From Fibrobacter sp. UWB10 (lineage in GTDB: Bacteria > Fibrobacterota > Fibrobacteria > Fibrobacterales > Fibrobacteraceae), in NCBI RefSeq assembly GCF_900182935.1, contig NZ_FXUE01000006.1, positions 62,001-126,000 of the forward strand: DNA of 64,000 bases, given 5' to 3'. Made by a program: the position numbers and the translations under genes. This document shows, piece by piece, positions 2,033 to 58,771 of the stretch (position 1 is its first letter; each line of letters opens with the position of its first letter). The notes under the pieces were generated by a model. That model searched no databases, had not been told where the DNA came from, and saw only the letters and a program-made list of their open reading frames with translations.

Positions 2033-2059
2033 TTTTATATGCAAAAAATGCTAGATTAA
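2029..2059 (+). promoter_or_regulatory. Candidate Bacteroides-type promoter for the MCE-HPr-EI operon
   Basis: TTTG at 2029-2032 is followed after 19 bases by TAGATTAA at 2052-2059, which matches six of eight positions of TAnnTTTG. It sits just before the ATG at 2067. The sequence TGCTAGATT could also be read as an extended -10 of the sigma-70 type. Confidence 0.35.
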
Positions 2060-2066
2060 AACCCAA

Positions 2067-2987: not shown

Positions 2988-2995
2988 GGAAAACA

Positions 2996-3268
2996 ATGAT
3001 TGAGAAAGCATTGGTGGTAACAAACAAGTTGGGGATACACGCAAGGCCTGCCGGAATGATAGTCGATATCACCGGCCAAGCCAAGAGCGATATATCCATC
3101 GTATTCGAGGGCTCGAAGGCGAATGCCAAGAGTATCTTGAATGTGATGATGCTTGCAATCCCTGCGGGTTCCGAAGTCAAATTCGAAATTGATGGCGAAG
3201 ACGAAGAACAGGTCGCGTCTCAGTTGGAAAGTCTGTTTAATGACCACTTCAACGAAGAACCCTGCTAA
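2996..3268 (+). CDS. ptsH: HPr phosphocarrier protein
   Basis: A small protein (90 residues) that accepts phosphate from enzyme I on a histidine. His15 lies in GIHARPAG, exactly where it lies in classical HPr. Ser46 lies in AKSILNVMML, matching the regulatory serine phosphorylated by HPr kinase in other bacteria. The length and fold order fit HPr throughout. The 3' end overlaps ptsI by 29 bases, so the two are tightly coupled. No sugar-specific enzyme II gene is seen in this window, so the pair may serve regulation or distant PTS genes. Confidence 0.95.
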   Translation: MIEKALVVTNKLGIHARPAGMIVDITGQAKSDISIVFEGSKANAKSILNVMMLAIPAGSEVKFEIDGEDEEQVASQLESLFNDHFNEEPC

Positions 3269-38098: not shown

Positions 38099-40216
38099 AT
38101 GAAGAACATTCTCAAAGTTGCGATTGGTGCGCTCGCTCTCACGGCGGCAACCTCCTCCTTTGCGGGTCAATACCCCTTCCCGCAGAACATGAAGCATCCG
38201 CACGGCACGACCATTGAATATGCCGATACGGACATGATCAAGGCCCACTACCAGAAGTGGAAAAAGGCCTGGTACAATTCCAACAATGGTTGGATTTATG
38301 CACCGGAAGGAACCGGTTCTACCGTTTCCGAAGCTATCGCTTACGGTATGTTGATTGCAGTCTACATGGATGACCAGTCCATGTTCGATAAGGTTTATAG
38401 CGTTTGGACATCCAACGGCGGTAACGGCGGTGGTATGAACTGGCGCATCGGTGATGGTGGCGGTACCGGTTCTGCAACTGACGCAGACGTTGACGCTGCT
38501 CTCGCTCTCGTGATGGCTTCCAAGCAGTGGAGCAAGGATTCCTACTTGACCGACGCCAAGAAGATTATCTCTTGGATTGGCACCAACGATATTAACGGTG
38601 GCCACGTTAAGCCGGGTAACCAGTGGAACGATGCTTTCAACCCGAGCTATGGTACGCTCGCTAACTTTGAACTCTTCAAGTCTGTTGACGCTTCTGGTCC
38701 GTGGTCCAACGTGCTTTCGACCACTGCTTCTGACCTGAAGGCTTGCCAGAACTCCTCTACGGGTCTTGTCCCGGACTGGTGCGACTGGAACTCTCATAAG
38801 CCGACTAAGACTTCTGCTTCTGTGGCCCAGACCGAAAATGCAGGCTTCTTCGATGACGCTGCCCGTACTCCGTGGCGCATGGCTTGGGCTTACTACTGGT
38901 ATGGTAATTCCGATGCAAAGGCCTTCAACAAGAAGGTTTCTGATTGGCTCATCCCGACTACTCACACCGCTAGTGGCGTGAACTCCGGTTACTATGTAGA
39001 TGGTCAGCCGGAACTCTCTACCAAGCGTCGTTTCGTTTCTTCTACCTTCTCTGGTGGTCTCGGCCTCGCCACTTCTTCTGTTGATGGTGATGACGCTAAG
39101 GCTTACCTCGGTACGACCTATAAGGCTCTTTCCTCTCTCACGAGCTGCGAAACTGCTCAGGGTTGCGGTGAAGGCGTTGCCGGTGAAAAGTACTATCCGG
39201 CTACTTTGAACCTCCTTTACCTCCTCCTCATGACCGGTAACATGCCGAACCTCTATGATATTTCCAAGTTCACCAAGTTCACTCCGGATCCGAGCAAGGC
39301 TCCGTCTGTTTCTGAAATCGGTGGTACTCAGATGCAGCCCAAGGATACGACAGTTGGTCTTTCTGGCTTCTGGAACTGGGGTGCATACCATGACAAGCTC
39401 AATATCGGTACCAAGATGGTTCCGGATTCTGGTTCTTCTCCGCTCTTCCTCAAGGAAGATGGTCAGATTTATGCCGAAGCCTCTATGGAAATTGGTCCGG
39501 AACCGGAATGGACCAAAGAAAAGGCCGAAGCAGGTCTTCTCAAGTATCCGTCTGCCGGTATCGCCATGTCCTTCCTCGCTAACGATAAGAAGGGTGTGAA
39601 CTTCAATACTCTTGGTATTAAGGCTGTTCGCGTGACCATGAAGTCTTCTGGCCCGATTCGTATGGCTATCCTTAATGAATTCACTGCCGAAGCTGGTGCT
39701 GAACCGGGTATTTTCGTTCCGACGAGTTCTGATTACAAGGCTACGACTTATGACATGACTCCGTACGATCAGGGTGTCAAGGGCTTCGATAACGATAACT
39801 TCGGCGGCCTCCTTGACTGGGTTGACAAGAACGAAGCTCCGGAAGGAACTCAGATCGTTACCGCTGTGACTGGCTTCAAGTGGGAAGTTAAGGACGCTAA
39901 GGGTGGTATCGGTGAATTCTCCATCAAGTCCATCGAATTCCTCGATGCTTCCGGCAATGTGATTGATCCGGCCACGATTACCGGCATCAAGATCCAGTCT
40001 GGTCCGATTACCGGCATCAAGACCGCTGTTGCTCCGGCTGCTGCAAAGATCTCTGTCTCTGGCATGACCATCTCTGCTGGCGCTGCTCAGGATATCGCAG
40101 TGTTCTCTCTCCAGGGCAAGAAGATTGCTTCTGGCAAGGCTTCCGTAACTGTTCCGAGCAAGGGTATCTACCTGGTTCGCGTGAACGGCAAGCTCTCCAA
40201 GGTGAACGTCAAGTAA
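38099..40216 (+). CDS. Glycoside hydrolase family 8 enzyme with type IX-like sorting domain
   Basis: A 705-residue secreted beta-glucanase, probably an endoglucanase (the family also includes licheninases and chitosanases). The signal peptide covers about 1-22. The GH8 catalytic domain (about 25-385) has the general acid Glu78 in TVSEAIAYGM, the SATDADVDAAL motif with Asp128, and the probable base Asp253 in FFDDAARTPWRMAWAYYWYG. About 400-640 form a strand-rich accessory domain of unknown family, possibly carbohydrate binding. The last 60 residues (IAVFSLQGKKIASG...PSKGIYLVRVNGKLSKVNVK) fit a type IX C-terminal sorting domain. Codon use is clearly biased to frequent codons, suggesting high expression. 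It stands alone, with a strong terminator. Confidence 0.92.
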   Translation: MKNILKVAIGALALTAATSSFAGQYPFPQNMKHPHGTTIEYADTDMIKAHYQKWKKAWYNSNNGWIYAPEGTGSTVSEAIAYGMLIAVYMDDQSMFDKVYSVWTSNGGNGGGMNWRIGDGGGTGSATDADVDAALALVMASKQWSKDSYLTDAKKIISWIGTNDINGGHVKPGNQWNDAFNPSYGTLANFELFKSVDASGPWSNVLSTTASDLKACQNSSTGLVPDWCDWNSHKPTKTSASVAQTENAGFFDDAARTPWRMAWAYYWYGNSDAKAFNKKVSDWLIPTTHTASGVNSGYYVDGQPELSTKRRFVSSTFSGGLGLATSSVDGDDAKAYLGTTYKALSSLTSCETAQGCGEGVAGEKYYPATLNLLYLLLMTGNMPNLYDISKFTKFTPDPSKAPSVSEIGGTQMQPKDTTVGLSGFWNWGAYHDKLNIGTKMVPDSGSSPLFLKEDGQIYAEASMEIGPEPEWTKEKAEAGLLKYPSAGIAMSFLANDKKGVNFNTLGIKAVRVTMKSSGPIRMAILNEFTAEAGAEPGIFVPTSSDYKATTYDMTPYDQGVKGFDNDNFGGLLDWVDKNEAPEGTQIVTAVTGFKWEVKDAKGGIGEFSIKSIEFLDASGNVIDPATITGIKIQSGPITGIKTAVAPAAAKISVSGMTISAGAAQDIAVFSLQGKKIASGKASVTVPSKGIYLVRVNGKLSKVNVK

Positions 40217-45250: not shown

Positions 45251-45321
45251 TGTCCCCAAAAATCCCTCGTAAGTGATGGTTATTTTACCAAAAAATGACG
45301 AAAAACTTACAGTGCTAATAA

Positions 45322-45434
45322 GTGTGAGAAATTGCACTTTTCTTTAGCAAAAATTTACATAAAATTTGCGTTTTTTGCGTTATTTCGCCATTTTTGTGTT
45401 TTTCTTGACCGTTTTGTAAAAAAATAAGTTATTT
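45322..45434 (+). promoter_or_regulatory. AT-rich upstream region of the pseudopilin operon
   Basis: The gap 45251-45476 is AT-rich and noncoding. It contains TGTGAGAAATTGCACT (45325-45340), a partial match to TGTGA-N6-TCACA, and TTGACC at 45405-45410 followed by TTATTT/TATTTT about 18-19 bases on, a possible sigma-70-type promoter. AGGTAGGA precedes the ATG at 45477. Confidence 0.3.
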
Positions 45435-45476
45435 TAATAAGAGGCTGAAAACTTCAAGGCTGTGTAAGGTAGGATT

Positions 45477-46055
45477 ATGCTGTTAGCAAAGCAAAATATT
45501 CGCACAAGAAAAGCTGGTTTTACTCTGGTTGAAGTCCTGGTAGTTGTCACTATCATGGGAATTCTTTCGGCTATGGGTGTTGTGGGCCTGCAGCGTGCCG
45601 TTGCCAATGCCCGCGTTAAAGACGCTGCTGTCAATACCGCAGCCTTTGTTGAACGTGTGGGTAATGAAGCAATCCGCATGTCCTCCGAAATTTGCCTTGC
45701 CCAGAGTGGCGATCAAAAAATTTTAGCGTATAAGGTGGATTCTAAAACAGAATGCCACGGAACGCGAATTGATTCTTTGGTGATTGATGCCCCGAACAAG
45801 TTTACGACTATGGCAGCTTGCGGCATGCCGGCCGATGTCCCCAATATGCTGACATCTACCGATGTTAACAAGCGTTTCTTTAAGCCGAAAACGGGACTTT
45901 CTGCAGTACCGGTTGAAGGGGCAATCTGCATTCAGTATGGTTCCGACCAAATTTTTGGTGCGGCTCGAAAGCTTAAAACGTCCAATTCAGTTAGGGCGCA
46001 ATGGAAGGTCGGAAACGATGTGACTGCAAATGGGGCTGACTGGATGGACCTGTAG
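45477..46055 (+). CDS. Type IV pseudopilin (GspH/FimT-like)
   Basis: A 192-residue minor pilin. The prepilin peptidase site is in RKAGFTLVEVLVVVTIMGILSAMGVVGLQRAV: cut after Gly14, Phe becomes residue 1 and is methylated, and Glu5 is present. The mature part begins with the usual hydrophobic helix; the rest is a variable globular domain with several cysteines (EICLAQ, KTECHG, AACGMP, AICIQYG). It is the first gene of a four-gene unit of minor pilins; order and type match the fimT/pilV/pilW/pilX arrangement of type IV pili. Confidence 0.88.
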   Translation: MLLAKQNIRTRKAGFTLVEVLVVVTIMGILSAMGVVGLQRAVANARVKDAAVNTAAFVERVGNEAIRMSSEICLAQSGDQKILAYKVDSKTECHGTRIDSLVIDAPNKFTTMAACGMPADVPNMLTSTDVNKRFFKPKTGLSAVPVEGAICIQYGSDQIFGAARKLKTSNSVRAQWKVGNDVTANGADWMDL

Positions 46056-46073
46056 TCTTTGGTTAGGTGGTGT

Positions 46074-46589
46074 ATGGCGATGGTGAACAGACATTCGGTT
46101 GTTAGGCCGTGTGCGCGTGGAAAGCGAGGCTTTGGCATTGTAGAGGTACTAATTGCTGCTGCCGTGCTCGGCTTTTTGTACATGGCAGTGATGAACTTGC
46201 AAGGTGGCAATCGTGATGCTCTCCTTCGTATTCGTGGTCGCGATGGTGCGACCGAAGTAGCTCAAAATATTATTGATTCGTTGGGTTCGTTAGGTATTGC
46301 GAGCCTTTCAGATGCTAATCTGGGGGTCGGTGGCGATGGCAAGTTGAATCCCATTGCGATTCCGAATATTGAACGAACATGGAAAGGCCAGCCGGGTGTT
46401 ATTGAACACGACATGAAGGTTGTTTATAACGCCGAAGTTTCTGTATCGCGTGATAATGAGTACATGGTGCAAAATTCCACGATGTTGCAGAATGTTTCTC
46501 ACGTGTATGCGAAACGGCTTGATGTCAAGGTAAGCTGGCAGTTCAAAAACTCGATACAATCTATTGTAGTTTCGGGGGTGATTCGATGA
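46074..46589 (+). CDS. Type IV pseudopilin (PilV-like)
   Basis: A 171-residue minor pilin. The site RGKRGFGIVEVLIAAAVLGFLYMAVMNLQ has the cleaved glycine, a phenylalanine and Glu5. The ATG at 46074 has AGGTGG three bases upstream; the ATG at 46080 (two residues shorter) has better spacing and could be the true start; the TTG at 46059 is unlikely. The globular part is short. Its stop overlaps the next ATG (ATGA). Confidence 0.82.
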   Translation: MAMVNRHSVVRPCARGKRGFGIVEVLIAAAVLGFLYMAVMNLQGGNRDALLRIRGRDGATEVAQNIIDSLGSLGIASLSDANLGVGGDGKLNPIAIPNIERTWKGQPGVIEHDMKVVYNAEVSVSRDNEYMVQNSTMLQNVSHVYAKRLDVKVSWQFKNSIQSIVVSGVIR

Positions 46590-47959
46590 AACCCCTCAAA
46601 AAGTCGGGCTTTACCCTGATGGAACTTCTTGTCTACATGGCGATTGTAGGCATTGTTGTCATTGTCGCTGGACAGGCATTTAGCAATTCGACCAAGTTCC
46701 GCATTCGTACCGACAACATGATTAAGGCTACGCAAGAAGCCGAAAATGTAGGAACACTGTTCAAAGAAGACCTTGAACAGATGGGTGCGAAAAGCTCCAA
46801 GGAATCGAGCGGTGCGGGTGGATCGAGTGACGTGTTTTCGACATTGTCCTTGGCTCAAGATGTTTATATGAAGGCATCCGATGTAGATGCGTCAAATATT
46901 GATAAGTCCTCGTATAAGCTTATTGCGGGCGCCAATGATGAAATCGTCTTTAGGCGCTTCCGATTTGATGATGCCGGACATTTTGTTGCGGTGGAAGAAA
47001 TCGGGTGGTTTGTTGAAAATAAGACATTAAAGCGTTCTTGTCGCACGATATCGCCGTCTTCGGCAGGTATGGATTATTGCCCGAGTGGAAAAACTGCAGA
47101 TCAGGCGAAAGCGGATGCCGTCAATATGGCGACAGGCGTGTCGAAATTCAATGTGACTCCTGCAATGCCTGGTGTACAGGATGGTTCCGTGGGTCAGCTG
47201 TTCCCTTATTGCTCTGCAGAGCCATGCCCCAAGGCTTTCCGTATGGTTGCTCGTGAAGGAGGTGGCGACTATATTGGCCTTACGATTTCTTCTGATGCGG
47301 AAACACACAAGATTGTTCATCTTTCTGGATTCGTAACCAATTATGATAACAATACGAATGCCGTTTCTAGTACTTCGCCAAGAATTAACCAGGTGTATGC
47401 AATCGGAAATTCTGATGGCACTGGTTCTTGGTCGGCTCGTTGTAGCGAAGCAGGCAATCATTTTACGTTAGAAAAGAATACCCTGTACGAATTGTCCTTT
47501 GATATGATAAACAATGCGGATAAATCAAGGATGTTTATCCCGGGAACGGACCACATGGCGGTGGGCTTTAGAACTCAGGACGGTGCCAAGCCTGCTGGTA
47601 TAGATGACTTTATGTTCTTCCCGCCGGCGACGGATCAGGCGTCTGGTACACGGACAATGCGTTTTACGGTTCCCAATAAAATTGAGAATGTTTGCATTGC
47701 CTTTACGTTTGCATGTTATTCACCGTTGGTCGCCAATGGTCGAATTACAATTTCTGACTTGCTGTTGAAAAAAGTTGAAACGGCAAATTACTCTTTTAAC
47801 TACGCTTCGTCCAAGGAATTTCCTATCAAGGACAAGGAACGTGTTAAAGCTTTTAAGATGGAGATGCAAGTAAATCGAGGGGATAAAAATGGTGCTAGCG
47901 GAGAAACGGGAAATGTCGTATTGATAATTCCGACTCCTAGCAATGGTCCGTATGATTAG
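46586..47959 (+). CDS. Type IV pseudopilin (PilW/GspJ-like), large
   Basis: A 457-residue minor pilin, larger than usual PilW. The site KKSGFTLMELLVYMAIVGIVVIVAGQAF has Gly before Phe and Glu5. A Ser/Gly-rich stretch (KSSKESSGAGGSS, about 70-83) links to a large domain with cysteine pairs (CRTISPSSAGMDYC, CSAEPC), and a later part (about 230-400) looks like a beta sandwich of the carbohydrate-binding kind (FTLEKNTLYELSFDMINNADKSRMFIPG, TRTMRFTVPNKIENVCIAFTFACYS). That resemblance is by pattern only. It is coupled to the previous gene by an ATGA overlap. Confidence 0.85.
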   Translation: MKPLKKSGFTLMELLVYMAIVGIVVIVAGQAFSNSTKFRIRTDNMIKATQEAENVGTLFKEDLEQMGAKSSKESSGAGGSSDVFSTLSLAQDVYMKASDVDASNIDKSSYKLIAGANDEIVFRRFRFDDAGHFVAVEEIGWFVENKTLKRSCRTISPSSAGMDYCPSGKTADQAKADAVNMATGVSKFNVTPAMPGVQDGSVGQLFPYCSAEPCPKAFRMVAREGGGDYIGLTISSDAETHKIVHLSGFVTNYDNNTNAVSSTSPRINQVYAIGNSDGTGSWSARCSEAGNHFTLEKNTLYELSFDMINNADKSRMFIPGTDHMAVGFRTQDGAKPAGIDDFMFFPPATDQASGTRTMRFTVPNKIENVCIAFTFACYSPLVANGRITISDLLLKKVETANYSFNYASSKEFPIKDKERVKAFKMEMQVNRGDKNGASGETGNVVLIIPTPSNGPYD

Positions 47960-47972
47960 CGAGGATATCCCC

Positions 47973-50900
47973 ATGCAGACAACATCGAAAATAAATAAAG
48001 CAGGCGTTTCCTTAATCGCTGTACTTTTATTTATGCTTATTGCGACTATCGCCGCAACCGCCACTTGGAAATGGATTTCAAGTGAGGGGCGTTCTAGTGC
48101 GAGTCGTATGCTTAAGCGTGAGGCTTACCAAAGCTCCATTGCTGGAATCGAGAACACCCGAGCGTGGATGACTTTCCATGGTAATGATGTCGGTGCCTTG
48201 ATTAAGCAGTATTACGATAATGGCAATCAACCGATTAAGTTGAACAACCGGTTGACTCCTTGGCTTCGTGCAGACCAGAATTATGATGTTTGGCTGACGG
48301 GTGTTAATACGGAGTCGGCTCATAACTTCAAGTTGAAAATCCTTTCTCGAGGTACTTCGAGAGGGTCTTCTGTGCATACAGAAGCCGCCGTGCTTAATGT
48401 AGATGGTTTGTACCGGGTTAAGATTCCGAGCGAAAGCATTCCGATGGACTTTGATAAGGCCTTCTCGGGAACGCTGACGAATATGACTAACTCACCGACA
48501 ATCGAGTCTGCTATTGTCAATGGTGATTTTTCGGGTAACCAGCCTTCTGTCGACAATGAATTGGTTGTTACGGGTAATGTGACTTTGCAAGGCCCTGTTA
48601 ATGGTGCAAAGGGCTTGGCTGGTGCGGATCTTTATGTGAAGGGTAACCTGACTTTAAATGGCAATACAAATATTGGTGGCCCGGGAAAGGTTGCCTATGT
48701 TGGTGGTGATGTCGTTAAGTGCGAAGGTGGTAGCGAATTCCATCCGAAGGGAGACTTTTTGGTAGAAGGAAGCTTCCCTGCAGATTGTAATATTGAAATC
48801 GATGGAAACATGACTGTCGGTGGAACCCTCTATCGTGATGGTGCTGATAGAAGGTTCAAGATTGGAAAGAACTTGGTGTTCAAGAAAAATGGCGACTTTA
48901 ATTGGACCGGTGTTTCTACCCTGGTGGGTGGCGCTGGTACTCATAAGGAAGGTGTTGGGAAAAAATCCTATTTGGCGAGTGTTTCCGGAAAAGATGCTAG
49001 CAATAACAGAATTGTTAATCTTGGAACGGATATTTATCTTTATTCGTCTTTCCCGGCTCAATATTGTCAGAATGGCTGCGTGATTAGCGATGAAGTCCAC
49101 ATGAATTCGTGCATGAACCGCTGCGCAGGTGGAACTGGCCTTGAGGCAAATACTTATTGTGAAGGCTTTTTCACTTCGTGTGCCGAAAAAGATTATGGAA
49201 CGTATCGTTCTACTATTGGCGTTCCGGATAATCGATATTTCTCGTTTAAGTCTCCCGGCTCGAATGGAAGGGTGAGGTCTACTCGCATTTCTTCGTGGGA
49301 CAGAAACGATAACGTTTTGAAAGATGTCGGTGATGATTATTGGAAAAACATCGATAAGATGAATGCCTATGGTCGTTTGATTAAAGAAGAAACGAATACG
49401 ATTCCTCAGCCGGTTCTCCTTAAGGATTCTACCACTTGGGCGAAGAAATCGGCTAATGCCCGCTGTCGAGAATTGGGATTCTTAAAGGTGGATAAATCCA
49501 ACGCGGGAAAAATTGCTAATGGCGACATGCAAAATGACGATAGCGTGTGGGTTGACCTCAATGATTGCTATCAGAAATTGTCTAACGAAGGCGACCCGAT
49601 TCTTTATAATGGATTTATGGTCGTGAAGTTTGATGGCGGCGCGGGAATGAATATGAAGCAAACCGTCACCGAGGTGTTGAGGGGAAAATATGTTTTCTTC
49701 TTTGAATCTCAAATAAGCGGCGCTTTCTATTTGCCGCCTACGACAGAAGAGACGACAATTATGCTGTTTACTTCGAGAGGTGGCGGAACGCTTTACTCTG
49801 CTAAAACAGATGCAGAACATGTTGGACCTTATGTCTTTAACTATTTCATATACGCAGATGGTGGCACCGAAAGTCAATTGGAATTCAAGGAACTGCAAAT
49901 AAATGGTTCTGTAGTGATGGCCAATGGCAGTAAGGCTGCGATTTCTGATGGTGGCGTGCACTTGAATTATAATAGCAAAGTCCTTTCGGACCTTGCTCAG
50001 GCGGGAATAATTGAACAAAATCCCGAATATACGGCGGTTGTTAATGGTGATGAATCCGCTGCAGGAGGCTCTGGTGTCTCTGTTGCGGGTGGCCATGACG
50101 CATATTTCATTGCGACTGCTCCGCAACTCCATGTTACGCTGGTTAGCCAATCGGAAAGTTCCGAAGAAGCTCCTTCAGGAGCTGCGGCAAATGTCGAAGT
50201 TGCAACGTCGTTTATCGTTCTCCCTCGCGTTATCTATTTGCCTAAGAATCCTTATGGTAAATTGGGCGATTACTTTAGCGTGGTCAACTTGAATGGTGGC
50301 GCGGTTACCAAGAGTATGACAAACGTGTCGGGTTGTACCGAAATTCCGAAAGATCCGAATCTTTTGTATAATCGAACGGAAGGGGCTACGGCAGAATATC
50401 TCGCTCCTGGTTTGTATGAATGTAAGTATACGGCAAATAGCCAAGAGGTTCCGTTCTACGTTAGAGTCCAGAATGAAACGGTGAGCAACGCTCCTTTTGT
50501 TCATTTTATGGACAGTCATCAGGAAATGAGCGCGAATTATGAGGCCCCGCTTAAGTTGAAGTATATTTCGACTACGGGAGCGGAAGCTTTTGAAGTGACT
50601 ATTTCGAAGCCCACGGGCTTGCCTGAATCGTGGGTCGTGACGCCGCAGGCACCATTGAAGGCGGGAACGACTTGCGATGATGCTTCGCCGGAATGTACGT
50701 TCGCATTGCATTTTGATGACCAAAGCCCGCTGACTTTGTTTACGGTGAAAACCATTGATGCCGTCTCTGGAACGGTGGATTTCCAAATTGTCAATTGCTC
50801 GGGTTGCCAACCGGAAAATCCCAGTTCAGAAACCTTCTCGATTTCTAATTCTGTGACGGTGAACCGTTTTGGAATCGCGGAATATTGCGGCGTGGGTGGC

Positions 50901-53900
50901 CCGGGTCATGGAAAGAGCGTTTGCGAACAGGGTGGCTCCTATTATGAAATGGCTCAGGCCGATTGGCCGGATTGTCCTTCGACAGGGACATGGGTTAAGG
51001 CTGTGGGCACCGACGCTTCTGTAACGAACAATTGTTCTGCTAGCGCAACGAATCCTAACGATGCATGGACTTGTGGAAGATCTAGTGATCTTAAGTTGAA
51101 CGCGATTGCATCGGGCGTTCCCGTAGGGTGCTCGGCCATTGTGCCTTCGTATACGTTGCCGATGAGTGCTTTGGAGGCAGATCATAGTTATAGTCTGTAT
51201 GGCTCCTTAAAGCGCGACAAGGTGAATTTCCATGTGGATTTCAAGGGTGACCGTCTGAGTGGAAAAATCATTAGGGTGAGCTCTAACAGGTTCGGTGCCA
51301 CTTATCAAACGTGTGCCTATTCTTCGGCTGGTTGCGATTTTACCTTGTTCTCTGGGGATAATATCACGTTTACCGCTGATGACGATTTAGCCTATTGGAA
51401 GTGCGATGTTGATAACAGCACCGATTGTAAAGAGACCGGAAATAACACTGGAGAAACATTTACCGTTAATGCGTTGACAGGTAATAACCGAGTCGAAGCT
51501 TGGTTCTACCAGAAAGATCAACATTGTTTCTTCGATGAATTTAAAACGGCAAGAGAATGTACTGCAAGCGGTACAGAAAATGAATGGAAATATTGCTTTG
51601 ACTATTGCAGTAGTTCCGGAGATTGTGCTATCGGAAACGGAACTTTTAATGGATATGCCAAATGGCTTGTAATGGGCAACAGTACCCTGCGTGACCGTCT
51701 CCAGTATTCTGATGGAAAAATCTGGTTGGAAAATGGAAACGTTTATGGAAACAAGCTGGCCGATAGAAGTGCATTGAAAATCCTTAGCTCTGTAAATGCA
51801 GGACTTTATGGAACAATGCGTGCTCAGTTTAGGGTGCCCCGATTGATCGGTGACGATAATAAGTCTATTGACGGATCTGGCTTTATGCTTCATTCCGATA
51901 ATGCCGCACAATCGTACCTTATGTTGAATGTGTATGCAAATGCAGACGGTAATCTTATTGCTCGCGTGTGTTTTGGTTCATCTTGTCAAGAAAGTGCGCT
52001 GGCGGAAAATGGCCGTGTGTATAGCACAGATATAGTCACGATGTCTGCGACAATCAGGAGCGCTACAGGAAGCGACTATCTTGATGTCGAAACGATTACG
52101 GGCTATATGGGCAATTACAGAACGGCAACGGCAACATTTGAGCTTTCTTCGCTTGACGGATACGGTGGTACTTTGACGAATGCGAATGAATTTGTCGGCT
52201 TTAGTCTGTCTAGCCCCGACTTTGTGCTCTATGATATTGGCTGGAAGAGTAAAACCTATGAACGAGAATGCTGGGATTCGTATCCTACGGTTAGGTGCTC
52301 GTTCAAGGCCGCTTATGAGGGCGGCGTGGTTCCCAAGGACTCGGTAACGAGACCGTGGGTCGGACTTTCAAGCTGGTTCGATAGAAAGGATTGTACTCCT
52401 CAGTATTGGTACAATGGTGACGATGCGTGCGGTAGAAGCACAACGGGAGAATATTCCGAATGTTTCAGTGATTCGTATGTATTTGATGCTGAAGGGGCGC
52501 ATGGTGTTACGAGTGTCGAAAATAACGTAACAACAGAAACTCGTATGGCCATGGCTATGGTGCAGAATTGCGCGGCATCGCTTTCGGATGCAAATAGGGC
52601 CCTCCTTTATGCAGAACAGGCAAAATGCGGTTCCTTCTGGGTGGGTCACGTTGAACTGTGCAATGAAAAACTCGCCATATTCCCGACGAATACGGACAAT
52701 TCAAGAGTGATTACAACTCATACGAAGAATGCTGAATTGGAATCCTTTGATGCGTATGAACTTTTCGCCTTGAGCGATGCGACTAATATGCGTTCTGCAC
52801 GATTGAAAGTGCTGCTTGCAAATGAATTTGCCAGCGAGGCTGAAATATATCTGCGTAGTCAGGTGAACGGAAGCCCGAATGTCTATTATAGCAAGCCGGT
52901 TGTCACAACGGGCAATGGGACTGTCTTGAACATCAATGTAGATGATGTTTCGGACGTGGAAGGCTTTGATCCTGAACATGTGACCGGTGTGATTGTTAGA
53001 AATCTTGGTGCATATCAGTTTACGGTTGAACAAATCCATATGGATTGTGATTTTGTTCCCCGTGTTGAATGTAGAGATGTTGAATACGATGCGAATAAGT
53101 TCAAGGTGACGGTTAATGTCAAGAATTCGAATAGGGCATCGTCTTATGAAATGACGGTTAAAGAAAACAACCAACTTGTCGATGACTTGAAGATGACTCA
53201 GGATTGTTCTGCAGGAGAGTGCCTGCAAAGCGATGATGAGGACAATATTCTGCTTGTTACCAAGGAATACAATCCCTATGCGATAAACGGAGCAAAGGAA
53301 TATCTCTTTACGGTAAGCATGAAGAATGATGCCGGAGAAGAAGTAGAAAATTCTCCGTGCACGATTTCGCTTTCGCTGACTGATATTGCTGCGTCTTGCA
53401 AATGGAATGAACATCCTGGGGCAGGGCCTTATCACTTGGCTCAGGGGGCCGGATTCCCGCCGTTCCTGTACAGCCTCACGTGCCCAGAAGGAAAATCCTG
53501 TTCTTATGAAATTTTGCTTGACAATGAGAAAATATATGAAGGAACAGGTAACACAAGTGGTTACTCAAGTTTGCCGACATCGGTAACGAATAGCATTAAT
53601 ACGAAGCAAAATCCGTTGGCGGACAAGTCTGAACATACGTTGGTTTTCCGTAGCTCAAACGATGCGGCTACTTTCCCGGCTTGTACAAAAACCTTTAAGA
53701 TTACAAAGCCTGCCAAGGAAAAGGTTGAGTGCAGTCTTTCAAATGCGGAAGAAACGGCTGCTGTTTCTGATGGTGGGGAGTCTATGGCAATTCCGGCTAG
53801 CTCGGTGACGGTGACTGGCTGTGACGATGGTGGATGTACCTATACGATTAAGGATGGTGCGGAAGTCGTTGGCAGTGGCAATTTCACTAGTGGCTATAAT

Positions 53901-54344
53901 CTCTATTTCACTGGGGCAACTGAACCGGGTGTACATAATTATAAGGTGGATATTAAGCGTGGTGCCGAAGCTGATAAGCCTTGTGGCGGAACCTACAAGG
54001 TGACCTATACGGGAGCCGCTTCAAGTTCGAGTGCTGAACCTGAGCCGAGTTCTAGTGCTACTAGTTTGGGCGTTGTCGAAATAAAGGATGTTGACAAGGC
54101 ACATGATGTCGCATGTGGAAAATCGATAACAGTATCTGTTGAACAGGCTCAATGGAATAATACTGTGCTTGTGTGTAGTGGTGCTCCGGCTGGAAGTGTT
54201 GGCGGCAATCCTAAGACTGAAAATAATCTTGTAACCAATCAGGTTTGTGCTGGTTATGGGAATGGAGGATCTCCGACTACATGTACTGGGAAATTCTCGA
54301 CTGAATGTACGGGAACCTTGTCTTGCCAAATTTCTAGGTGGTAA
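47973..54344 (+). CDS. Giant PilX/GspK-like pseudopilin fused to a surface adhesin
   Basis: A 2123-residue protein. The ATG at 47973 has GAGG eight bases upstream; earlier ATGs at 47943 and 47952 lie over the previous gene's end. The N-terminus KINKAGVSLIAVLLFMLIATIAATATWKW is a pilin-like helix with a Gly before the hydrophobic run but no Glu5, as in PilX/GspK tip subunits. About 170-310 are glycine-rich beta repeats (VTGNVTLQGPVNG, YVKGNLTLNGNT). Cysteines are abundant. About 1210-1430 resemble a lectin-like sandwich. About 1809-1919 and 1920-2015 are two related domains starting CKW/CSL with a C-x-Y pattern, followed by a Ser-rich linker (near 2016-2032) and a short Cys-rich end. Likely a pilus-tip adhesin. 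Confidence 0.85.
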   Translation: MQTTSKINKAGVSLIAVLLFMLIATIAATATWKWISSEGRSSASRMLKREAYQSSIAGIENTRAWMTFHGNDVGALIKQYYDNGNQPIKLNNRLTPWLRADQNYDVWLTGVNTESAHNFKLKILSRGTSRGSSVHTEAAVLNVDGLYRVKIPSESIPMDFDKAFSGTLTNMTNSPTIESAIVNGDFSGNQPSVDNELVVTGNVTLQGPVNGAKGLAGADLYVKGNLTLNGNTNIGGPGKVAYVGGDVVKCEGGSEFHPKGDFLVEGSFPADCNIEIDGNMTVGGTLYRDGADRRFKIGKNLVFKKNGDFNWTGVSTLVGGAGTHKEGVGKKSYLASVSGKDASNNRIVNLGTDIYLYSSFPAQYCQNGCVISDEVHMNSCMNRCAGGTGLEANTYCEGFFTSCAEKDYGTYRSTIGVPDNRYFSFKSPGSNGRVRSTRISSWDRNDNVLKDVGDDYWKNIDKMNAYGRLIKEETNTIPQPVLLKDSTTWAKKSANARCRELGFLKVDKSNAGKIANGDMQNDDSVWVDLNDCYQKLSNEGDPILYNGFMVVKFDGGAGMNMKQTVTEVLRGKYVFFFESQISGAFYLPPTTEETTIMLFTSRGGGTLYSAKTDAEHVGPYVFNYFIYADGGTESQLEFKELQINGSVVMANGSKAAISDGGVHLNYNSKVLSDLAQAGIIEQNPEYTAVVNGDESAAGGSGVSVAGGHDAYFIATAPQLHVTLVSQSESSEEAPSGAAANVEVATSFIVLPRVIYLPKNPYGKLGDYFSVVNLNGGAVTKSMTNVSGCTEIPKDPNLLYNRTEGATAEYLAPGLYECKYTANSQEVPFYVRVQNETVSNAPFVHFMDSHQEMSANYEAPLKLKYISTTGAEAFEVTISKPTGLPESWVVTPQAPLKAGTTCDDASPECTFALHFDDQSPLTLFTVKTIDAVSGTVDFQIVNCSGCQPENPSSETFSISNSVTVNRFGIAEYCGVGGPGHGKSVCEQGGSYYEMAQADWPDCPSTGTWVKAVGTDASVTNNCSASATNPNDAWTCGRSSDLKLNAIASGVPVGCSAIVPSYTLPMSALEADHSYSLYGSLKRDKVNFHVDFKGDRLSGKIIRVSSNRFGATYQTCAYSSAGCDFTLFSGDNITFTADDDLAYWKCDVDNSTDCKETGNNTGETFTVNALTGNNRVEAWFYQKDQHCFFDEFKTARECTASGTENEWKYCFDYCSSSGDCAIGNGTFNGYAKWLVMGNSTLRDRLQYSDGKIWLENGNVYGNKLADRSALKILSSVNAGLYGTMRAQFRVPRLIGDDNKSIDGSGFMLHSDNAAQSYLMLNVYANADGNLIARVCFGSSCQESALAENGRVYSTDIVTMSATIRSATGSDYLDVETITGYMGNYRTATATFELSSLDGYGGTLTNANEFVGFSLSSPDFVLYDIGWKSKTYERECWDSYPTVRCSFKAAYEGGVVPKDSVTRPWVGLSSWFDRKDCTPQYWYNGDDACGRSTTGEYSECFSDSYVFDAEGAHGVTSVENNVTTETRMAMAMVQNCAASLSDANRALLYAEQAKCGSFWVGHVELCNEKLAIFPTNTDNSRVITTHTKNAELESFDAYELFALSDATNMRSARLKVLLANEFASEAEIYLRSQVNGSPNVYYSKPVVTTGNGTVLNINVDDVSDVEGFDPEHVTGVIVRNLGAYQFTVEQIHMDCDFVPRVECRDVEYDANKFKVTVNVKNSNRASSYEMTVKENNQLVDDLKMTQDCSAGECLQSDDEDNILLVTKEYNPYAINGAKEYLFTVSMKNDAGEEVENSPCTISLSLTDIAASCKWNEHPGAGPYHLAQGAGFPPFLYSLTCPEGKSCSYEILLDNEKIYEGTGNTSGYSSLPTSVTNSINTKQNPLADKSEHTLVFRSSNDAATFPACTKTFKITKPAKEKVECSLSNAEETAAVSDGGESMAIPASSVTVTGCDDGGCTYTIKDGAEVVGSGNFTSGYNLYFTGATEPGVHNYKVDIKRGAEADKPCGGTYKVTYTGAASSSSAEPEPSSSATSLGVVEIKDVDKAHDVACGKSITVSVEQAQWNNTVLVCSGAPAGSVGGNPKTENNLVTNQVCAGYGNGGSPTTCTGKFSTECTGTLSCQISRW

Positions 54345-54369
54345 AACGCGCTAGTGTCACTTGTAAAAT

Positions 54370-54399
54370 AAAACGGGCTGCTCTAAAGCAGCCCGTTTT
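54370..54399. terminator. Bidirectional intrinsic terminator
   Basis: AAAACGGGCTGCT pairs perfectly with AGCAGCCCGTTTT around CTAA: 13 pairs with A on one side and T on the other. It separates the convergent giant pilin gene and the barrel gene ending at 54420. Confidence 0.92.
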
Positions 54400-54419
54400 C
54401 CATAGAAATTGATGTTCGA

Positions 54420-55028
54420 TTATTTGAACCAGTAGGTTCCGCCGATCTGAATTTGCATGTTCTTGAAGGCTTGGTCGTCGTTGTCAAATTTTTTGCCGTC
54501 AACAATAGAATTCAAACCGACTGCAAAGCGAATGTCAAGGTCCAGATTCTGTGCGACCGAGAAACCGACGCCGGCATCGAGGCCGATTTCAAAAATGTGG
54601 AGTGCGTCAACTTTGCGGTCGCCGAGCTTGATCTTTTCGGCGCCCGGACCGGTATCGAATTTGCGTTCGATTTCAGAACTCAAGAGGAATCCGAGCTGCG
54701 GGCCGGCTTCTAAGTACATCTGAGGAACCACGCTGTAGCGGGCGAGAACGGGAACTTCGATTGCCCAAGTGTTCCAGGTGATTTCGTCGTCTTTTTGACG
54801 GCGCCAGTCCACATTCATTTCGGGAACAACGCAGATCTTTTCGTTTACGGGAACCTTAGTGGCAACACCGGCTAAAACGCCGAGGCTCCAAGGAATTTCC
54901 ATTTCAGAGGCGCCGTCGCCCCAGAGGGTGCTGAAGTTCACCGCAGCGTGTCCGCCAATTTGAACTTGAGCAAAGGAGATGCCGGTGGCGAGCAGAGTGC
55001 CTGCAATAATACGGGAGATCTTTTTCAT
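54420..55028 (-). CDS. Outer-membrane beta-barrel protein (PorT/OmpA-barrel-like)
   Basis: A 202-residue exported protein with a signal peptide (about 1-20, MKKISRIIAGTLLATGISFA). The mature part opens VQIGGHAAVNFSTLWGD, with strands such as WSLGVLAGVATKVPV, ICVVPEMNVDWRRQ, AIEVPVLARYSVVPQMYLEAGPQLGFLLSS and DLDIRFAVGLNSIVD, and ends IQIGGTYWFK, an eight-strand barrel pattern. EVPVLARY and AGPQLGFLLSS are typical of the barrel families annotated PorT or outer_membrane_beta-brl in the FCB group. The function is unknown. GAGG lies eight bases before the ATG. Confidence 0.8.
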   Translation of the reverse strand: MKKISRIIAGTLLATGISFAQVQIGGHAAVNFSTLWGDGASEMEIPWSLGVLAGVATKVPVNEKICVVPEMNVDWRRQKDDEITWNTWAIEVPVLARYSVVPQMYLEAGPQLGFLLSSEIERKFDTGPGAEKIKLGDRKVDALHIFEIGLDAGVGFSVAQNLDLDIRFAVGLNSIVDGKKFDNDDQAFKNMQIQIGGTYWFK

Positions 55029-55049
55029 AGGAGTACCTCTGTAAATTTG

Positions 55050-56087
55050 CTATCTCAGCGGGTTCTTGTCGCTCTTGTACCACTTCATGAATTCGCCGAT
55101 GCCGTCGTGCAGACTCCAGTGGGGCTTGTAGCCGCACTCGGTTTCTAGCTTGGTGGTATCGGCGTTGGTCTGGTACACGTCACCAGGCTGCATGGGCAAG
55201 AAGTTCTTCTTGGCAGGCTCACCGTAAGCGTTTTCGATTTCGGCAATAAAGTCCATGAGCTTTACGGGGTGGCTGCAGCCGATGTTGTAAATCTTGTAGG
55301 GCACGTTGTTCGGGCACTTGGCAGCATCGGGTACATGGTCCAGCGTATGGATGGTGCCTTCGGCGATGTCGTCGATGTAGGTAAAGTCGCGAATCATGTC
55401 GCCGTTGTTGAACACCTTGATAGGTTCGCCCTTCGAAATAGCGCGGGCAAAAAGCATAGGCGACATATCGGGACGTCCCCACGGACCGTATACGGTAAAG
55501 AACCGTAGACCCGCGACGGGCAGGTTGTAAAGCTTGCTGTAGCTGTGGGCCATGAGCTCGTTGCTCTTTTTGCTGGCGGCATACAGGCTTACCGGATTGT
55601 CGACCTTGTCGTCTTCGCTGTAGGGAACCTTGCTATTAAGGCCATACACGGAACTCGACGAGGCGAACACGAGGTACTTGACTTCGTTATGGCGGCAGGC
55701 TTCCAGAATGTTCAGGAAACCGACCAGGTTGCTTTGCAGGTAGGCATACGGATTTGTGATAGAGTAGCGAACGCCAGCCTGTGCGGCGAGGTTCACGACC
55801 TTGTCAAACTTTTCTTCGGCAAAGAGCTTGTCGAGCGGTTCTTTGTCGTCGATACCCATCTTTACGAATCGGCAGTTCTTGTACTTGGTGCTTTGAACCA
55901 TGGCGCCGTAGGCGAAGTTGTCGCCGGGCTGCTCAATGCCGCCTTCGCGGAGTCGACCGTACTTGAGGCGTACATCATAATAGTCATTAATATTGTCGAG
56001 GCCCACCACTTCGTCGCCGCGTTCCGCGAGCATGAACATGAGCTTGGAGCCAATAAAACCTGCAGCACCAGTAACAAGAATCTTCAT
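55050..56087 (-). CDS. UDP-glucuronate 4-epimerase-like SDR
   Basis: A 345-residue extended SDR that probably interconverts UDP-glucuronate and UDP-galacturonate. Motifs: VTGAAGFIGSKL, LDNINDYYDVRLKYGRL, LAAQAGVRYSITNPYAYLQSNLVGFLNILEACR, ASSSSVYG, catalytic YAASKKS, and FTVYGPWGRPDMSPMLFARAI. The AQAGVRYS and GPWGRPDM blocks are hallmarks of the CapI/LpsL/GAE glucuronate epimerases, which tell it from GalE. Its substrate would be the product of ugd at 11272. It is 21 bases upstream of the barrel gene on the same strand. Confidence 0.9.
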   Translation of the reverse strand: MKILVTGAAGFIGSKLMFMLAERGDEVVGLDNINDYYDVRLKYGRLREGGIEQPGDNFAYGAMVQSTKYKNCRFVKMGIDDKEPLDKLFAEEKFDKVVNLAAQAGVRYSITNPYAYLQSNLVGFLNILEACRHNEVKYLVFASSSSVYGLNSKVPYSEDDKVDNPVSLYAASKKSNELMAHSYSKLYNLPVAGLRFFTVYGPWGRPDMSPMLFARAISKGEPIKVFNNGDMIRDFTYIDDIAEGTIHTLDHVPDAAKCPNNVPYKIYNIGCSHPVKLMDFIAEIENAYGEPAKKNFLPMQPGDVYQTNADTTKLETECGYKPHWSLHDGIGEFMKWYKSDKNPLR

Positions 56088-56128
56088 GTGGGGAAAGATA
56101 GTATTTTCTTTTTCTACCTTTATTCCCG

Positions 56129-56680
56129 ATGTCCACGGTCATTCTTTTCAACAAGCCTTTTGGCGTTTTGAGCCAGTTTACGCCGGAATCGGGCCATGCG
56201 GCTCTCGATACATTCGGGTTCCCGCCGGGGGTGTATGCGGCCGGGCGCTTGGATCACGATAGTGAGGGCGCGCTCTTGCTGACGGATAATGGCAAGTTAA
56301 TCAAGAAGTTGCTGGACCCGAAATTTGAACACCCGCGTACCTACTTGGCGCAAGTCGACGGCCAAATTACCGAAGAGGCCGTGCGCAAACTTGCGAAAGG
56401 GGTAGACATCAAAGGCTATCATACCAAACCTTGCAAGGCAGAAATTGCCGAAGAACCGGACTGGCTTTGGCCCCGCAATCCGCCCGTACGTTTCCGCGCA
56501 AATATTCCCACAAGCTGGGTGCGCCTTACGCTTATCGAAGGCAAAAATCGCCAGGTTCGTCACATGACGGCGGCGGTGGGGTTCCCGACGCTTCGCCTGA
56601 TTCGTGAGCAAATCGGAAACATTCCTCTGAACGATTTAAAACCAGGTGAATGGCGTGTGGTTACTGATAAAGTAATTTAA
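56129..56680 (+). CDS. rluE: 23S rRNA pseudouridine synthase RluE
   Basis: A 183-residue RluB/E/F-type enzyme without an S4 domain; it makes pseudouridine in 23S rRNA (position 2457 in E. coli). Catalytic Asp42 lies in AAGRLDHDSEGALLLT, the family-wide signature. FNKPFGVLSQF near the N-terminus and IEGKNRQVRHMTAAVGFPTLRLIR near the C-terminus complete the pattern. The length matches RluE. The start is 41 bases from the divergent epimerase start; no clear SD is seen. Confidence 0.92.
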   Translation: MSTVILFNKPFGVLSQFTPESGHAALDTFGFPPGVYAAGRLDHDSEGALLLTDNGKLIKKLLDPKFEHPRTYLAQVDGQITEEAVRKLAKGVDIKGYHTKPCKAEIAEEPDWLWPRNPPVRFRANIPTSWVRLTLIEGKNRQVRHMTAAVGFPTLRLIREQIGNIPLNDLKPGEWRVVTDKVI

Positions 56681-56716
56681 ATTATAAAACCCGCATCTTT
56701 TTATATATTTAGGCTT

Positions 56717-56884
56717 ATGAAGAACATGAAAAATATTATCGCTTTCGGGGTGACGTTATTCAGTGTCCTAATCGTTTGTTCTTGCTCTGACGAAAAAATT
56801 ACTTGTAATTGTATTGACGTACCTGACGAAAATGATTCGTCAGAAGTTGTCGTCGGGCCAGTGAATATGCTAATAAATAAGTGA
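56717..56884 (+). CDS. Short lipoprotein, 55 residues
   Basis: A small open frame with a lipoprotein-type signal: MKNMKNIIAFGVTLFSVLIVCSC, lipobox VCSC with the cysteine at about residue 23. The rest is short, acidic and cysteine-containing (DEKITCNCIDVPDENDSSE). TATATTTA lies five bases before the ATG. There is no SD of note. It lies between rluE and the solute-binding lipoprotein gene. The family is not recognised; it could also be a remnant of a longer lipoprotein gene. Confidence 0.5.
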   Translation: MKNMKNIIAFGVTLFSVLIVCSCSDEKITCNCIDVPDENDSSEVVVGPVNMLINK

Positions 56885-56953
56885 TTTTATGTTAAATTTT
56901 TAGTGGACTTTAGTGATATTTATCGAGTATTTAAGAAATCTACGAGATTTAAA

Positions 56954-58771
56954 ATGAAGAATAAGAAAATGAAGTTTTATAGTGCCGCGTTTATGTCTGC
57001 GGCTTTGATGGTTTCGGCGCTGTCGCTTAGCGCTTGCAATGAATCCGGCTCCAAGGGTACAAAGTCTGCTGGCAAGAATGCCGAATTGAATTGCCCTGAA
57101 TCGCCGTTTGATTCTACGGCCACGGGCGAGTTTGACCCGATTGCCTCGAAGGATGCCCGCCCCTGCGGTGCAATTACCTTGTGGGGCTCCGCGATGCCCA
57201 AATCCTTTAACATGTGGGAAGACTACAACAGTTTCTCGGCTGAACTCATGGGCATGATGTTTGAACCGCTCGTGAGCCTGCATAGCACCGAAGACCGCGA
57301 AGTGGGAATCCTCGCTGACAGTTGGAGCGTTAGCGAAGACGGCAAGACGTTCACCTTCCATGTGGACCCGCGCGCCAAGTGGAGCGACGGTAAATCGGTG
57401 ACCGCCGAAGATGTGCAGTTCTACTACGACGTCATCATGGACGAGAAAAACCTCACGCCGATTTTCAAGGTGGGGCTCAGCCGCTTTGATCGCCCCGAAG
57501 TCGTCGATAGCCTTACGGTGAAGATGACTGCCAAGGAATCGCACTGGGGCAACTTCTGGGAAGCCGCAGGCATGCTCGCCTTCCCGAAGCACGTGTGGGC
57601 CGGTAAGGACTTCAACCAGATTCGCTACGAATTCCCGGTGGTGTCTGGCCCGTATAAAATCAAGACTTTCCGCGAAGACCGCTACGTGGAACTTGCTCGT
57701 CGCGCCGACTGGTGGGGCTTCAAGAAGAACTGGAACCGCGGCAAGTACAACTTCGAAAAGATTCGCTACCGCTTCATGAACGATCAGACGAAGGCTCTTG
57801 AAGCGTTCAAAAAGCAAGACATCAACGCCTACGCGATTTACACCAGCAGCATTTGGATGAAGCAGACTGACTTCGACGCTATTCAGAAGGGCTGGGCAGT
57901 CAAGCAGCGTATCTTCAACAAGGAACCGATTGGTTTCCAGGGGATGGCCATCAACTTGCGCAAGCCGCAGTTCCAAGATGTTCGCGTGCGCCGCGCCCTC
58001 AACATGCTCCTGAACCGCGAAGCCATGAATGAAAAGTACATGTACAACCAGTACTTCTTGCTCAACAGCTATTACCCTGACCTGTGGGAAGGCAACCAGA
58101 ATCCGACTGCGACTCTCTACAAGTTCAATCCGGATAGCGCTCGCGCCCTCTTTGCAGAAGCGGGCTACAAGGTGAATGCGCAGGGCGTGCTCGAAAAAGA
58201 CGGCAAGCCGTTCGCCATCAACTTTATCACGAGCCAAGAAGACTTGCGTCACCTCACGTTGTTCCAGGAAGACTTGAAGAAGGTGGGCGTTGTCGCAACT
58301 ATCGAACAGATGTCGCAGAGTACGCTTCGCAAGCGCTTGGACGATGCCGACTTTGATTTGTACTGGGTGAACTGGGGCGCAGGCCGCCTCCGCGACCCGG
58401 AAGCCAGCTGGATTTCTACGACCGCATTGCAGAAGGGAACGAACAACCTCGCTGGCGTGCAAGACAAGGTGGTGGATAGCCTCATCAACTTGCAGAAGAC
58501 TGAATTCGATTTGGCCAAGCGTAACGAAATCCTGAAGGCGCTGGACAACCGTCTCGCTGAAATCGTGCCTTATGTGCTCATGTGGCAATGCGACCACCAT
58601 CGCATTCTCTACTGGAATCGTTACGGCACTCCGGAAAAGGTATTCGACCGCTTCAACCGCGAAGACGCAATCCCTGTTTACTGGTGGCTAGACCCCACGA
58701 AGTCTGCCGCTCTCGACAAGGCCATGAAGGCTGGCGAATCGCTCCCGATTCCGGAATACGACGTGAAGTAG
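56954..58771 (+). CDS. Family 5 (peptide-type) solute-binding lipoprotein
   Basis: A 605-residue ABC-transporter binding protein for oligopeptides or similar solutes. The ATG at 56954 is chosen because it begins the signal peptide (MKNKKMKFYSAAFMSAALMVSALSLSAC; lipobox LSAC); the frame is open to 56903. SBP_bac_5 features are ADSWSVSEDGKTFTFHVDPRAKWSDGKSVTAEDVQFYYDVIMD, VSGPYKIKTF, the basic QDVRVRRALNMLLNREAM, and YWVNWGAG near the C-terminus. No permease or ATPase gene is adjacent, so it works with components coded elsewhere. Terminator follows. Confidence 0.9.
   Translation: MKNKKMKFYSAAFMSAALMVSALSLSACNESGSKGTKSAGKNAELNCPESPFDSTATGEFDPIASKDARPCGAITLWGSAMPKSFNMWEDYNSFSAELMGMMFEPLVSLHSTEDREVGILADSWSVSEDGKTFTFHVDPRAKWSDGKSVTAEDVQFYYDVIMDEKNLTPIFKVGLSRFDRPEVVDSLTVKMTAKESHWGNFWEAAGMLAFPKHVWAGKDFNQIRYEFPVVSGPYKIKTFREDRYVELARRADWWGFKKNWNRGKYNFEKIRYRFMNDQTKALEAFKKQDINAYAIYTSSIWMKQTDFDAIQKGWAVKQRIFNKEPIGFQGMAINLRKPQFQDVRVRRALNMLLNREAMNEKYMYNQYFLLNSYYPDLWEGNQNPTATLYKFNPDSARALFAEAGYKVNAQGVLEKDGKPFAINFITSQEDLRHLTLFQEDLKKVGVVATIEQMSQSTLRKRLDDADFDLYWVNWGAGRLRDPEASWISTTALQKGTNNLAGVQDKVVDSLINLQKTEFDLAKRNEILKALDNRLAEIVPYVLMWQCDHHRILYWNRYGTPEKVFDRFNREDAIPVYWWLDPTKSAALDKAMKAGESLPIPEYDVK

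What the first reader, a model, noticed from the sequence alone, without database searches (positions are those of the whole stretch)
47973..54344. 2123-residue pseudopilin with an adhesin-sized extracellular part
The protein has a PilX/GspK-like N-terminus lacking Glu5 but is several times longer than known minor pilins, with glycine-rich beta repeats, a possible lectin-like sandwich, tandem Cys-containing domains and a Ser linker. It ends an operon with three Glu5 pseudopilins. It may sit on the pilus tip and bind plant cell-wall polymers.
Basis: partly seen in the sequence, partly recalled or inferred. Interest (0 to 1): 0.65.

Follow-up and report, generated by a model that had tools for sequence, protein, structure and literature searches.

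The report
Giant pilus-tip protein with swappable end
A rumen fibre-degrading bacterium (Fibrobacter) carries a pilus subunit about ten times the usual size that probably sits on the tip of its retractable pili as an adhesin, and its outermost 95 residues have been exchanged as a block between strains, which suggests that this bacterial family retools what its pili stick to by swapping the end piece.

Summary
The ORF is real (47973-54344, 2123 aa) and ends a four-gene minor-pilin operon in H-I-J-K order (FimT/PilV/PilW/PilX-like). Missing Glu5 is what a K/PilX subunit should show. Relatives occur in 95 of 168 Fibrobacterota genomes, all in the window's own family; complete ones are 1562-3103 aa. 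All 42 examined keep Gly(-1) and have Thr/Ala/Val at position 5, never Glu. Many pass the Pfam PilX_N cut-off; the window protein itself does not. The genome encodes a nearly complete retractile type IV pilus machine, contrary to a 2011 genome paper. No Fibrobacterota genome searched has a recognisable PilY1, so the giant may be PilX and tip effector in one chain. The body has CBM66-like and CBM30-like sandwiches (moderate model confidence). Main new finding: a same-species strain is 98-99% identical in DNA on both sides, but the last ~95 codons plus terminator are unrelated sequence. Across the family the last ~100 residues rarely match the nearest relative, yet recur on distant backbones. 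Best reading: type IV pilus tip adhesin with an exchangeable terminal module. Tip location, binding and plant-wall ligands are inferred. New variant of a known kind (modular pilins), shufflon-like in outcome but without a local shufflon.

The parts
45477..46055 (+). H-type (FimT/GspH-like) minor pilin, Glu5 present
   Evidence: N_methyl 2.6e-8; GspH 5.9e-8 below its cut-off, GFxxxE domain above cut-off
46074..46589 (+). I-type (PilV/GspI-like) minor pilin, Glu5 present; first possible start 46059, likely start 46074 or 46080
   Evidence: N_methyl 0.0011; GspI 0.00064 below cut-off
46586..47959 (+). J-type (PilW/GspJ-like) minor pilin, 457 aa, Glu5 present
   Evidence: N_methyl 2e-6; a J-type pilin directly precedes 28 of 31 complete giants
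47973..54344 (+). giant K-type (PilX-like) minor pilin, 2123 aa, no Glu5
47973..48005 (+). leader peptide, residues 1-11, predicted prepilin peptidase cleavage after Gly11
   Evidence: Gly invariant in 42 of 42 relatives by motif and in alignment A3; cleavage inferred
48000..48131 (+). PilX_N region, residues 10-53, near-invariant hydrophobic helix
48450..50132 (+). Gly-rich beta-repeat region, residues ~160-720, with a variable insert ~300-500; fold undetermined
   Evidence: sequence; family coverage drops at 300-500; model too poor
51501..52250 (+). ConA/CBM66-like sandwich, residues ~1177-1426
   Evidence: VIA Z 9.5, rmsd 3.4, 146 of 163 against CBM66 4b1m; pLDDT 60-80 in its best part
52656..53057 (+). 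CBM30-like jelly roll, residues ~1562-1695
   Evidence: VIA Z 10.0, rmsd 3.3, 125 of 173 against 1wmx
53055..53378 (+). Ig-like domain, residues ~1695-1802
   Evidence: VIA matches to the Ig-like domain of GH2 enzymes, e.g. 2je8 Z 9.8, rmsd 2.6, 96 residues
53379..54014 (+). tandem Cys-containing domains, residues ~1803-2014
   Evidence: sequence; similar tandem repeats in other giants
54015..54059 (+). Ser-rich linker (AASSSSAEPEPSSSA), left edge of the exchanged block at 54058
54060..54344 (+). exchangeable C-terminal Cys-containing module, residues 2030-2123, and stop
   Evidence: absent from 99%-identical orthologue L006/L050; recurs at ends of distant giants
54059..54409 (.). DNA block replaced in strain RUG13981: end of the linker, module, stop and terminator-like hairpin (hairpin 54371-54399)
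   Evidence: 98.6% identity before, 98.0% after, no homology within

Best explanation
The protein is the K (PilX-type) minor pilin of the bacterium's type IVa pilus, enlarged into a tip adhesin. Prepilin peptidase (PilD) removes the 11-residue leader after Gly11. The FimT-, PilV-, PilW- and giant PilX-type subunits form the four-pilin tip complex that primes the pilus. Because the giant lacks Glu5, nothing is placed above it, so its ~2070-residue ectodomain projects from the tip as a stalk of beta domains. Sandwich domains and above all the outermost ~95-residue Cys-containing module contact the target, and PilT retraction draws the cell in. With no PilY1 present, the giant also serves as the tip effector. 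The outermost module is replaced as a block between strains and species by recombination in the linker and in the conserved DNA after the gene, which changes specificity while the assembly part stays constant. Shown: ORF, operon order, conserved N-terminus without Glu5, pilus genes, no detectable PilY1, the block replacement, module reuse on distant backbones. Inferred: processing, tip location, adhesion, the recombination route, and the ligand (plant cell-wall polysaccharide about 0.4; other cells or matrix otherwise).
For: H-I-J-K operon, conserved in relatives. Gly-1 kept and position 5 never Glu in 42 relatives. PilX_N in 16 of 19, above cut-off in many giants. PilM, N, O, Q, PilB-like, PilC-like, two PilT and one PilD in the genome. 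PilY1 in 0 of 168 genomes, positive control rang. K lacks Glu5 and caps the tip complex in known systems (PMC9934059, PMC10191384). Sandwich folds like CBM66 and CBM30. Block exchange; fraction aligned to nearest relative falls from 1.00 in the body to 0.26 in the last 105 residues; only 2 of 32 complete giants share the module with the nearest backbone, while modules recur on backbones ~30-35% identical.
Against: No experimental data on processing, location or binding. The minor-pilin operon is not next to the machine genes, and the genome holds two other type-4-filament-like loci, so the assignment to the PilQ/PilT pilus is by content. The window protein itself is below the PilX_N cut-off. 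PilP was not recognised. A 2100-residue ectodomain must pass the secretin, a real difficulty unless it is thin. Structure models are of low confidence and shared fold does not show binding. Only one same-species strain pair shows the swap directly, and that strain is a metagenome assembly.
Confidence: 0.62

Rival explanations
1. Same tip protein, but the end module varies mainly to escape pilus-binding phages or to recognise other cells (kin or partner recognition), not to bind plant polymers.
For: Confinement of variation to the distal ~100 residues and block exchange fit an arms race or recognition equally well; in TP114 shufflon PilV C-termini determine recipient-cell choice (PMC9045228).
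Against: No phage or partner data. The family is confined to Fibrobacteraceae, whose studied members are fibre degraders, and two body domains resemble carbohydrate-binding modules.
Confidence: 0.2
2. It is a pseudopilin (GspK-like) of a type II secretion system rather than of a pilus.
For: T2SS and T4P minor pilins are homologous and both have a K subunit without Glu5; T2SS-like loci exist in the genome.
Against: Two other loci with secretin or ATPase genes carry their own small pilin sets, including a GspK-like protein of 300 aa and a PilX/GspK-like one of 408 aa, so the giant operon is not needed there; a ~2000-residue cap is unlike any GspK I know of.
Confidence: 0.1
3. The N-terminal helix is only an inner-membrane anchor and the protein is an envelope scaffold, not a pilus part.
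For: No processing data; the size is extreme for a pilus subunit that must pass a secretin.
Against: The pilin-type N-terminus is near-invariant including Gly-1, more than a plain anchor needs, and a J-type minor pilin directly precedes 28 of 31 complete giants.
Confidence: 0.06
4. The C-terminal block is a polymorphic toxin-like tip delivered by contact.
For: A constant body with swapped ~95-residue C-termini superficially resembles polymorphic toxins; Myxococcus Kil tips link minor pilins to killing (PMC12075869).
Against: No immunity gene can fit: the next gene is a conserved convergent outer-membrane protein starting 75 bases after the stop in both strains. The modules are Cys-rich with a Cys near the end in 28 of 32, which suits a disulfide-bonded extracellular domain.
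Confidence: 0.02

Closest known systems
Modular pilins (Streptococcus sanguinis PilB with vWA, PilC with a ConA-like lectin; PMC8179133, PMC9934059)
   Same: Functional modules grafted onto a small N-terminal pilin part for display by the filament, probably at the tip; one module type is a ConA-like sandwich.
   Different: PilB and PilC are far smaller (mature PilC 52.8 kDa) and PilC keeps Glu5; the multi-module extreme named in that survey is 860 residues. Here the carrier is the K/PilX subunit, 1562-3103 residues, and the last module is exchanged between strains.
PilX/GspK-type K subunit of the HIJK tip complex
   Same: Operon position after H-, I-, J-type pilins, Gly-1, no Glu5, PilX_N match across the family.
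   Different: Known members are roughly 200-300 residues (my knowledge); this one is 2123, with many grafted domains.
PilC/PilY1 non-pilin tip adhesin of type IVa pili
   Same: Large tip effector carried by the four minor pilins, with a modular variable part.
   Different: PilY1 is not a pilin and has a beta-propeller domain; none was found in 168 Fibrobacterota genomes.
Plasmid shufflon PilV (R64, TP114; PMC9045228)
   Same: Minor pilin adhesin with a constant N-terminal part and exchangeable C-terminus (69-113 residues in TP114).
   Different: No local cassettes, no inverted array in 53600-56200, and no second copy of the module type in the genome apart from the paralogue's end; exchange is seen between strains, not within one locus.
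Kil tips of Myxococcus xanthus (PMC12075869)
   Same: Several interchangeable minor-pilin tip sets, with the largest subunit exposing a variable domain.
   Different: Tad (T4c) pilus used in predation; smaller subunits; variation by paralogue sets rather than by swapping an end block.

Membership tests
K (PilX/GspK-type) minor pilin | PilX_N (PF14341) match | tested here: met
   Met for the family: above cut-off in many giants, 16 of 19 at E<=0.05. The window protein alone is below cut-off (14.4 of 25.5 bits).
K (PilX/GspK-type) minor pilin | No Glu at mature position 5 | tested here: met
   T/A/V in 42 of 42
K (PilX/GspK-type) minor pilin | Encoded after H-, I- and J-type pilins | tested here: met
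Type IV pilin | Leader ending in Gly followed by a hydrophobic helix | tested here: met
   Gly11 invariant, hydrophobic run 12-31
Type IV pilin | Cleavage by prepilin peptidase and assembly into a filament | not testable with these tools
   A PilD gene is present; the cleavage itself needs an experiment.
Modular pilin | Extra functional domain joined to the pilin part | tested here: inconclusive
   ~2000 extra residues are certain; domain folds (CBM66-like, CBM30-like) rest on a low-confidence model; function untested.
PilC/PilY1 | PF05567 domain | tested here: not met
   Not in the window protein; 0 of 168 genomes; positive control rang twice.
Shufflon PilV | Alternative cassettes in inverted repeats beside the gene, with an adjacent rci-type recombinase | tested here: not met
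   The next gene is a conserved OMP in both strains; no cassette-like inverted repeats in 53600-56200; the module type has only one other copy in the genome, at the paralogue's end. A recombinase elsewhere in the genome was not searched for.
Carbohydrate-binding modules (CBM66, CBM30) | Sequence family match and sugar-binding residues | tested here: inconclusive
   No Pfam match; fold resemblance only.

The most novel reading that the evidence does not exclude
In Fibrobacteraceae the K pilin has taken over the PilY1 role as a tip fibre of 1500-3100 residues, and adhesive specificity evolves by horizontal block exchange of its outermost ~95-residue module (with its terminator) across species: a population-level counterpart of the plasmid shufflon that needs no local inversion system.
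Probability: 0.5. Interest if true: 0.75.

Novelty: new variant of a known kind. Interest (0 to 1): 0.63.

Why it matters
How Fibrobacter clings to cellulose is a long-standing question, and the published genome analysis held that it lacked a complete pilus gene set and listed only small pilins. This gives a concrete, testable candidate: giant tip adhesins, two in this genome, with a defined end module that can be expressed alone and screened on plant polysaccharides. It also extends modular pilins to far larger sizes and shows end-module swapping in a chromosomal pilus.

Tried and rejected
Sequence searches of the window protein against Pfam, NCBIfam and PDB gave nothing above cut-off beyond the weak PilX_N match. 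A 19-member profile against PDB gave only marginal matches to a fibronectin type II module (MMP2, E 0.02) at profile positions 1492-1534, not pursued. Viral contigs hold no relatives. The N-terminal model (residues 1-1159) was too poor to search, so the fold of the beta repeats is undetermined. The structure alignments hold only five sequences, because the tool admits only window and the search for related loci sequences. Polymorphic-toxin reading rejected: no room for an immunity gene. Local shufflon rejected. The PilY1 search first rang nowhere, controls included, so a Neisseria record was searched as positive control. Assembly chimera was considered for the strain difference: two clean junctions, an intact ORF with its own terminator-like hairpin, and the same end-variability across nearest-relative comparisons make it unlikely. 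A link to the nearby GH8 endoglucanase was considered and dropped: ileS and a sugar transporter lie between.
Full report
Observation. The ORF at 47973-54344 (+) is intact, 2123 aa; an upstream ATG at 47943 is in frame, but 47973 has a GAGG ribosome site. Three pilins with Glu5 lie directly upstream in one tight operon. The host is Fibrobacter succinogenes or very close: a contig of F. succinogenes RUG13981 encodes a protein 99% identical over residues 1-2031.

Family. Whole-genome search finds relatives in 95 of 168 Fibrobacterota genomes, all in the window's own family, none outside it. Of 31 complete relatives the lengths are 1562-3103, median 2384. A second copy in the same genome (C1, 2294 aa, 35% identical in its best segment) has its own minor pilins. 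Several genomes have two or three copies, some with only the J-type pilin in front. The N-terminus is nearly constant (KxG^VSLITVLLFMLVATIAATATYKW); over 42 proteins position 1 is V or I and position 5 is T, A or V. PilX_N matches 16 of 19 and exceeds its cut-off in many giants, while above-cut-off PilX_N proteins outside this family in the phylum have open frames of 189-759 aa. So 'lacking Glu5' is the normal mark of this subunit; what is abnormal is the size.

Pilus machine. The genome encodes PilM, PilN, PilO and a PilQ-type secretin in one cluster, a PilB-like ATPase with a c-di-GMP-binding domain, a PilC-like platform protein beside a PilT, a second PilT, and one A24 prepilin peptidase, plus PilA-like pilins. 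PilP was not recognised; a 634 aa protein sits in its place. The 2011 genome paper on strain S85 stated that a complete pilus gene set is absent and listed only small pilins (PMC3079729); for this close relative that does not hold. PilY1 (PF05567) is not found in any of 168 genomes, while the same search finds two copies in a Neisseria record.

Ectodomain. AlphaFold models from five-sequence alignments were poor overall (mean pLDDT 48 for residues 1160-2123, 39 for 1-1159). In the better parts, residues ~1177-1426 resemble CBM66 (ConA-like; Z 9.5, rmsd 3.4, 146 of 163) and ~1562-1695 resemble CBM30 (Z 10.0, rmsd 3.3, 125 of 173), followed by an Ig-like domain. Best Z values of 7-8 are common for models without a clear match, so this is moderate support for fold and none for function. 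Foldseek's own top matches, GH2 enzymes, cover the same jelly-roll plus Ig pair.

The exchanged end. Compared with RUG13981, DNA is 98.6% identical over 45254-54058 and 98.0% over 54409-57754, but 54059-54408 has no homologue there: the last ~95 codons, the stop and the terminator-like hairpin are replaced by an unrelated block that also ends in a stop and a hairpin. At the paralogous locus the same two strains keep a 99% identical module (L035 against L120). Across the family, the fraction of each protein that aligns to its nearest relative is 1.00 in the body, 0.92 at 315-420 residues from the end, 0.77 at 105-210 and 0.26 in the last 105 (26 proteins). Of the 32 complete giants only 2 share the end module with the nearest backbone, even where backbones are 49-99% identical. 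Conversely, apart from the paralogue's orthologue in RUG13981, the window's module recurs only at the ends of giants (39-57% identical) whose backbones are about 30-35% identical to the window's. The RUG13981 module type occurs at the ends of other giants and of a separate class of Ser-rich surface proteins. At least 11 of 32 giants have a low-complexity linker before the module, against 2.3% of body windows. Fast divergence alone cannot explain the strain pair, given 98-99% identity on both sides; for the more distant pairs divergence beyond recognition remains possible.

Interpretation. In T4aP and T2SS the HIJK minor pilins form the tip complex, capped by a K subunit that lacks Glu5 (PMC9934059, PMC10191384). 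The operon order, the Glu5 loss, the pilus genes and the absence of PilY1 together make a tip adhesin the best reading. Confinement of variation to the distal end fits a contact surface. What it contacts is not shown; plant wall polysaccharide is plausible for fibre degraders, but phage pressure or cell-cell recognition would give the same pattern.

Known and new. Modular pilins are known (the multi-module extreme named in one survey is 860 residues; PMC8179133), as are swapped C-termini of a minor pilin by plasmid shufflons (PMC9045228) and interchangeable Tad tips (PMC12075869). New here, as far as the papers searched show: the size, the use of the K subunit as carrier together with the absence of PilY1, and block exchange of the end module in a chromosomal pilus without a local inversion system.

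Noticed in passing
G000 C2:440586-441728 (L084:5771-7756): The PilB-like ATPase carries an MshE-type c-di-GMP-binding domain well above its cut-off (NF053729, 122 bits against 38), so pilus extension may be under c-di-GMP control.
   Followed up: no
L088 (G000 C3:34521-40234): A pilMNO-pilQ cluster is present although the 2011 S85 genome paper says a complete pilus gene set is absent.
   Followed up: partly
L128, L130-L134, L136: The RUG13981-type end module also caps a separate class of Ser-rich, non-pilin surface proteins (open frames 643-696 aa), so the module moves between unrelated surface proteins.
   Followed up: partly
C-terminal regions of L015, L036, L038, L053, L098, L101, L102, L106 giants: Several giants carry an extra ~100-residue Cys-containing module with a C.F...I...DGGYYI.. 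pattern near the end, absent from the window protein.
   Followed up: no
C-termini of 32 complete giants: 28 of 32 have a Cys in the last 12 residues (31% expected from the body) and 23 of 32 an aromatic residue in the last 5 (40% expected), although the modules differ in sequence.
   Followed up: partly
L082, L083, L089 (G000 C2 and C3): Two further type-4-filament-like loci with secretins or ATPases and their own small pilins.
   Followed up: partly
window 38099-40216: A GH8-like endoglucanase ends in a tail resembling a type 9 secretion-type C-terminus; it lies upstream of the pilin operon but is separated by a sugar transporter and ileS (identification by eye).
   Followed up: no
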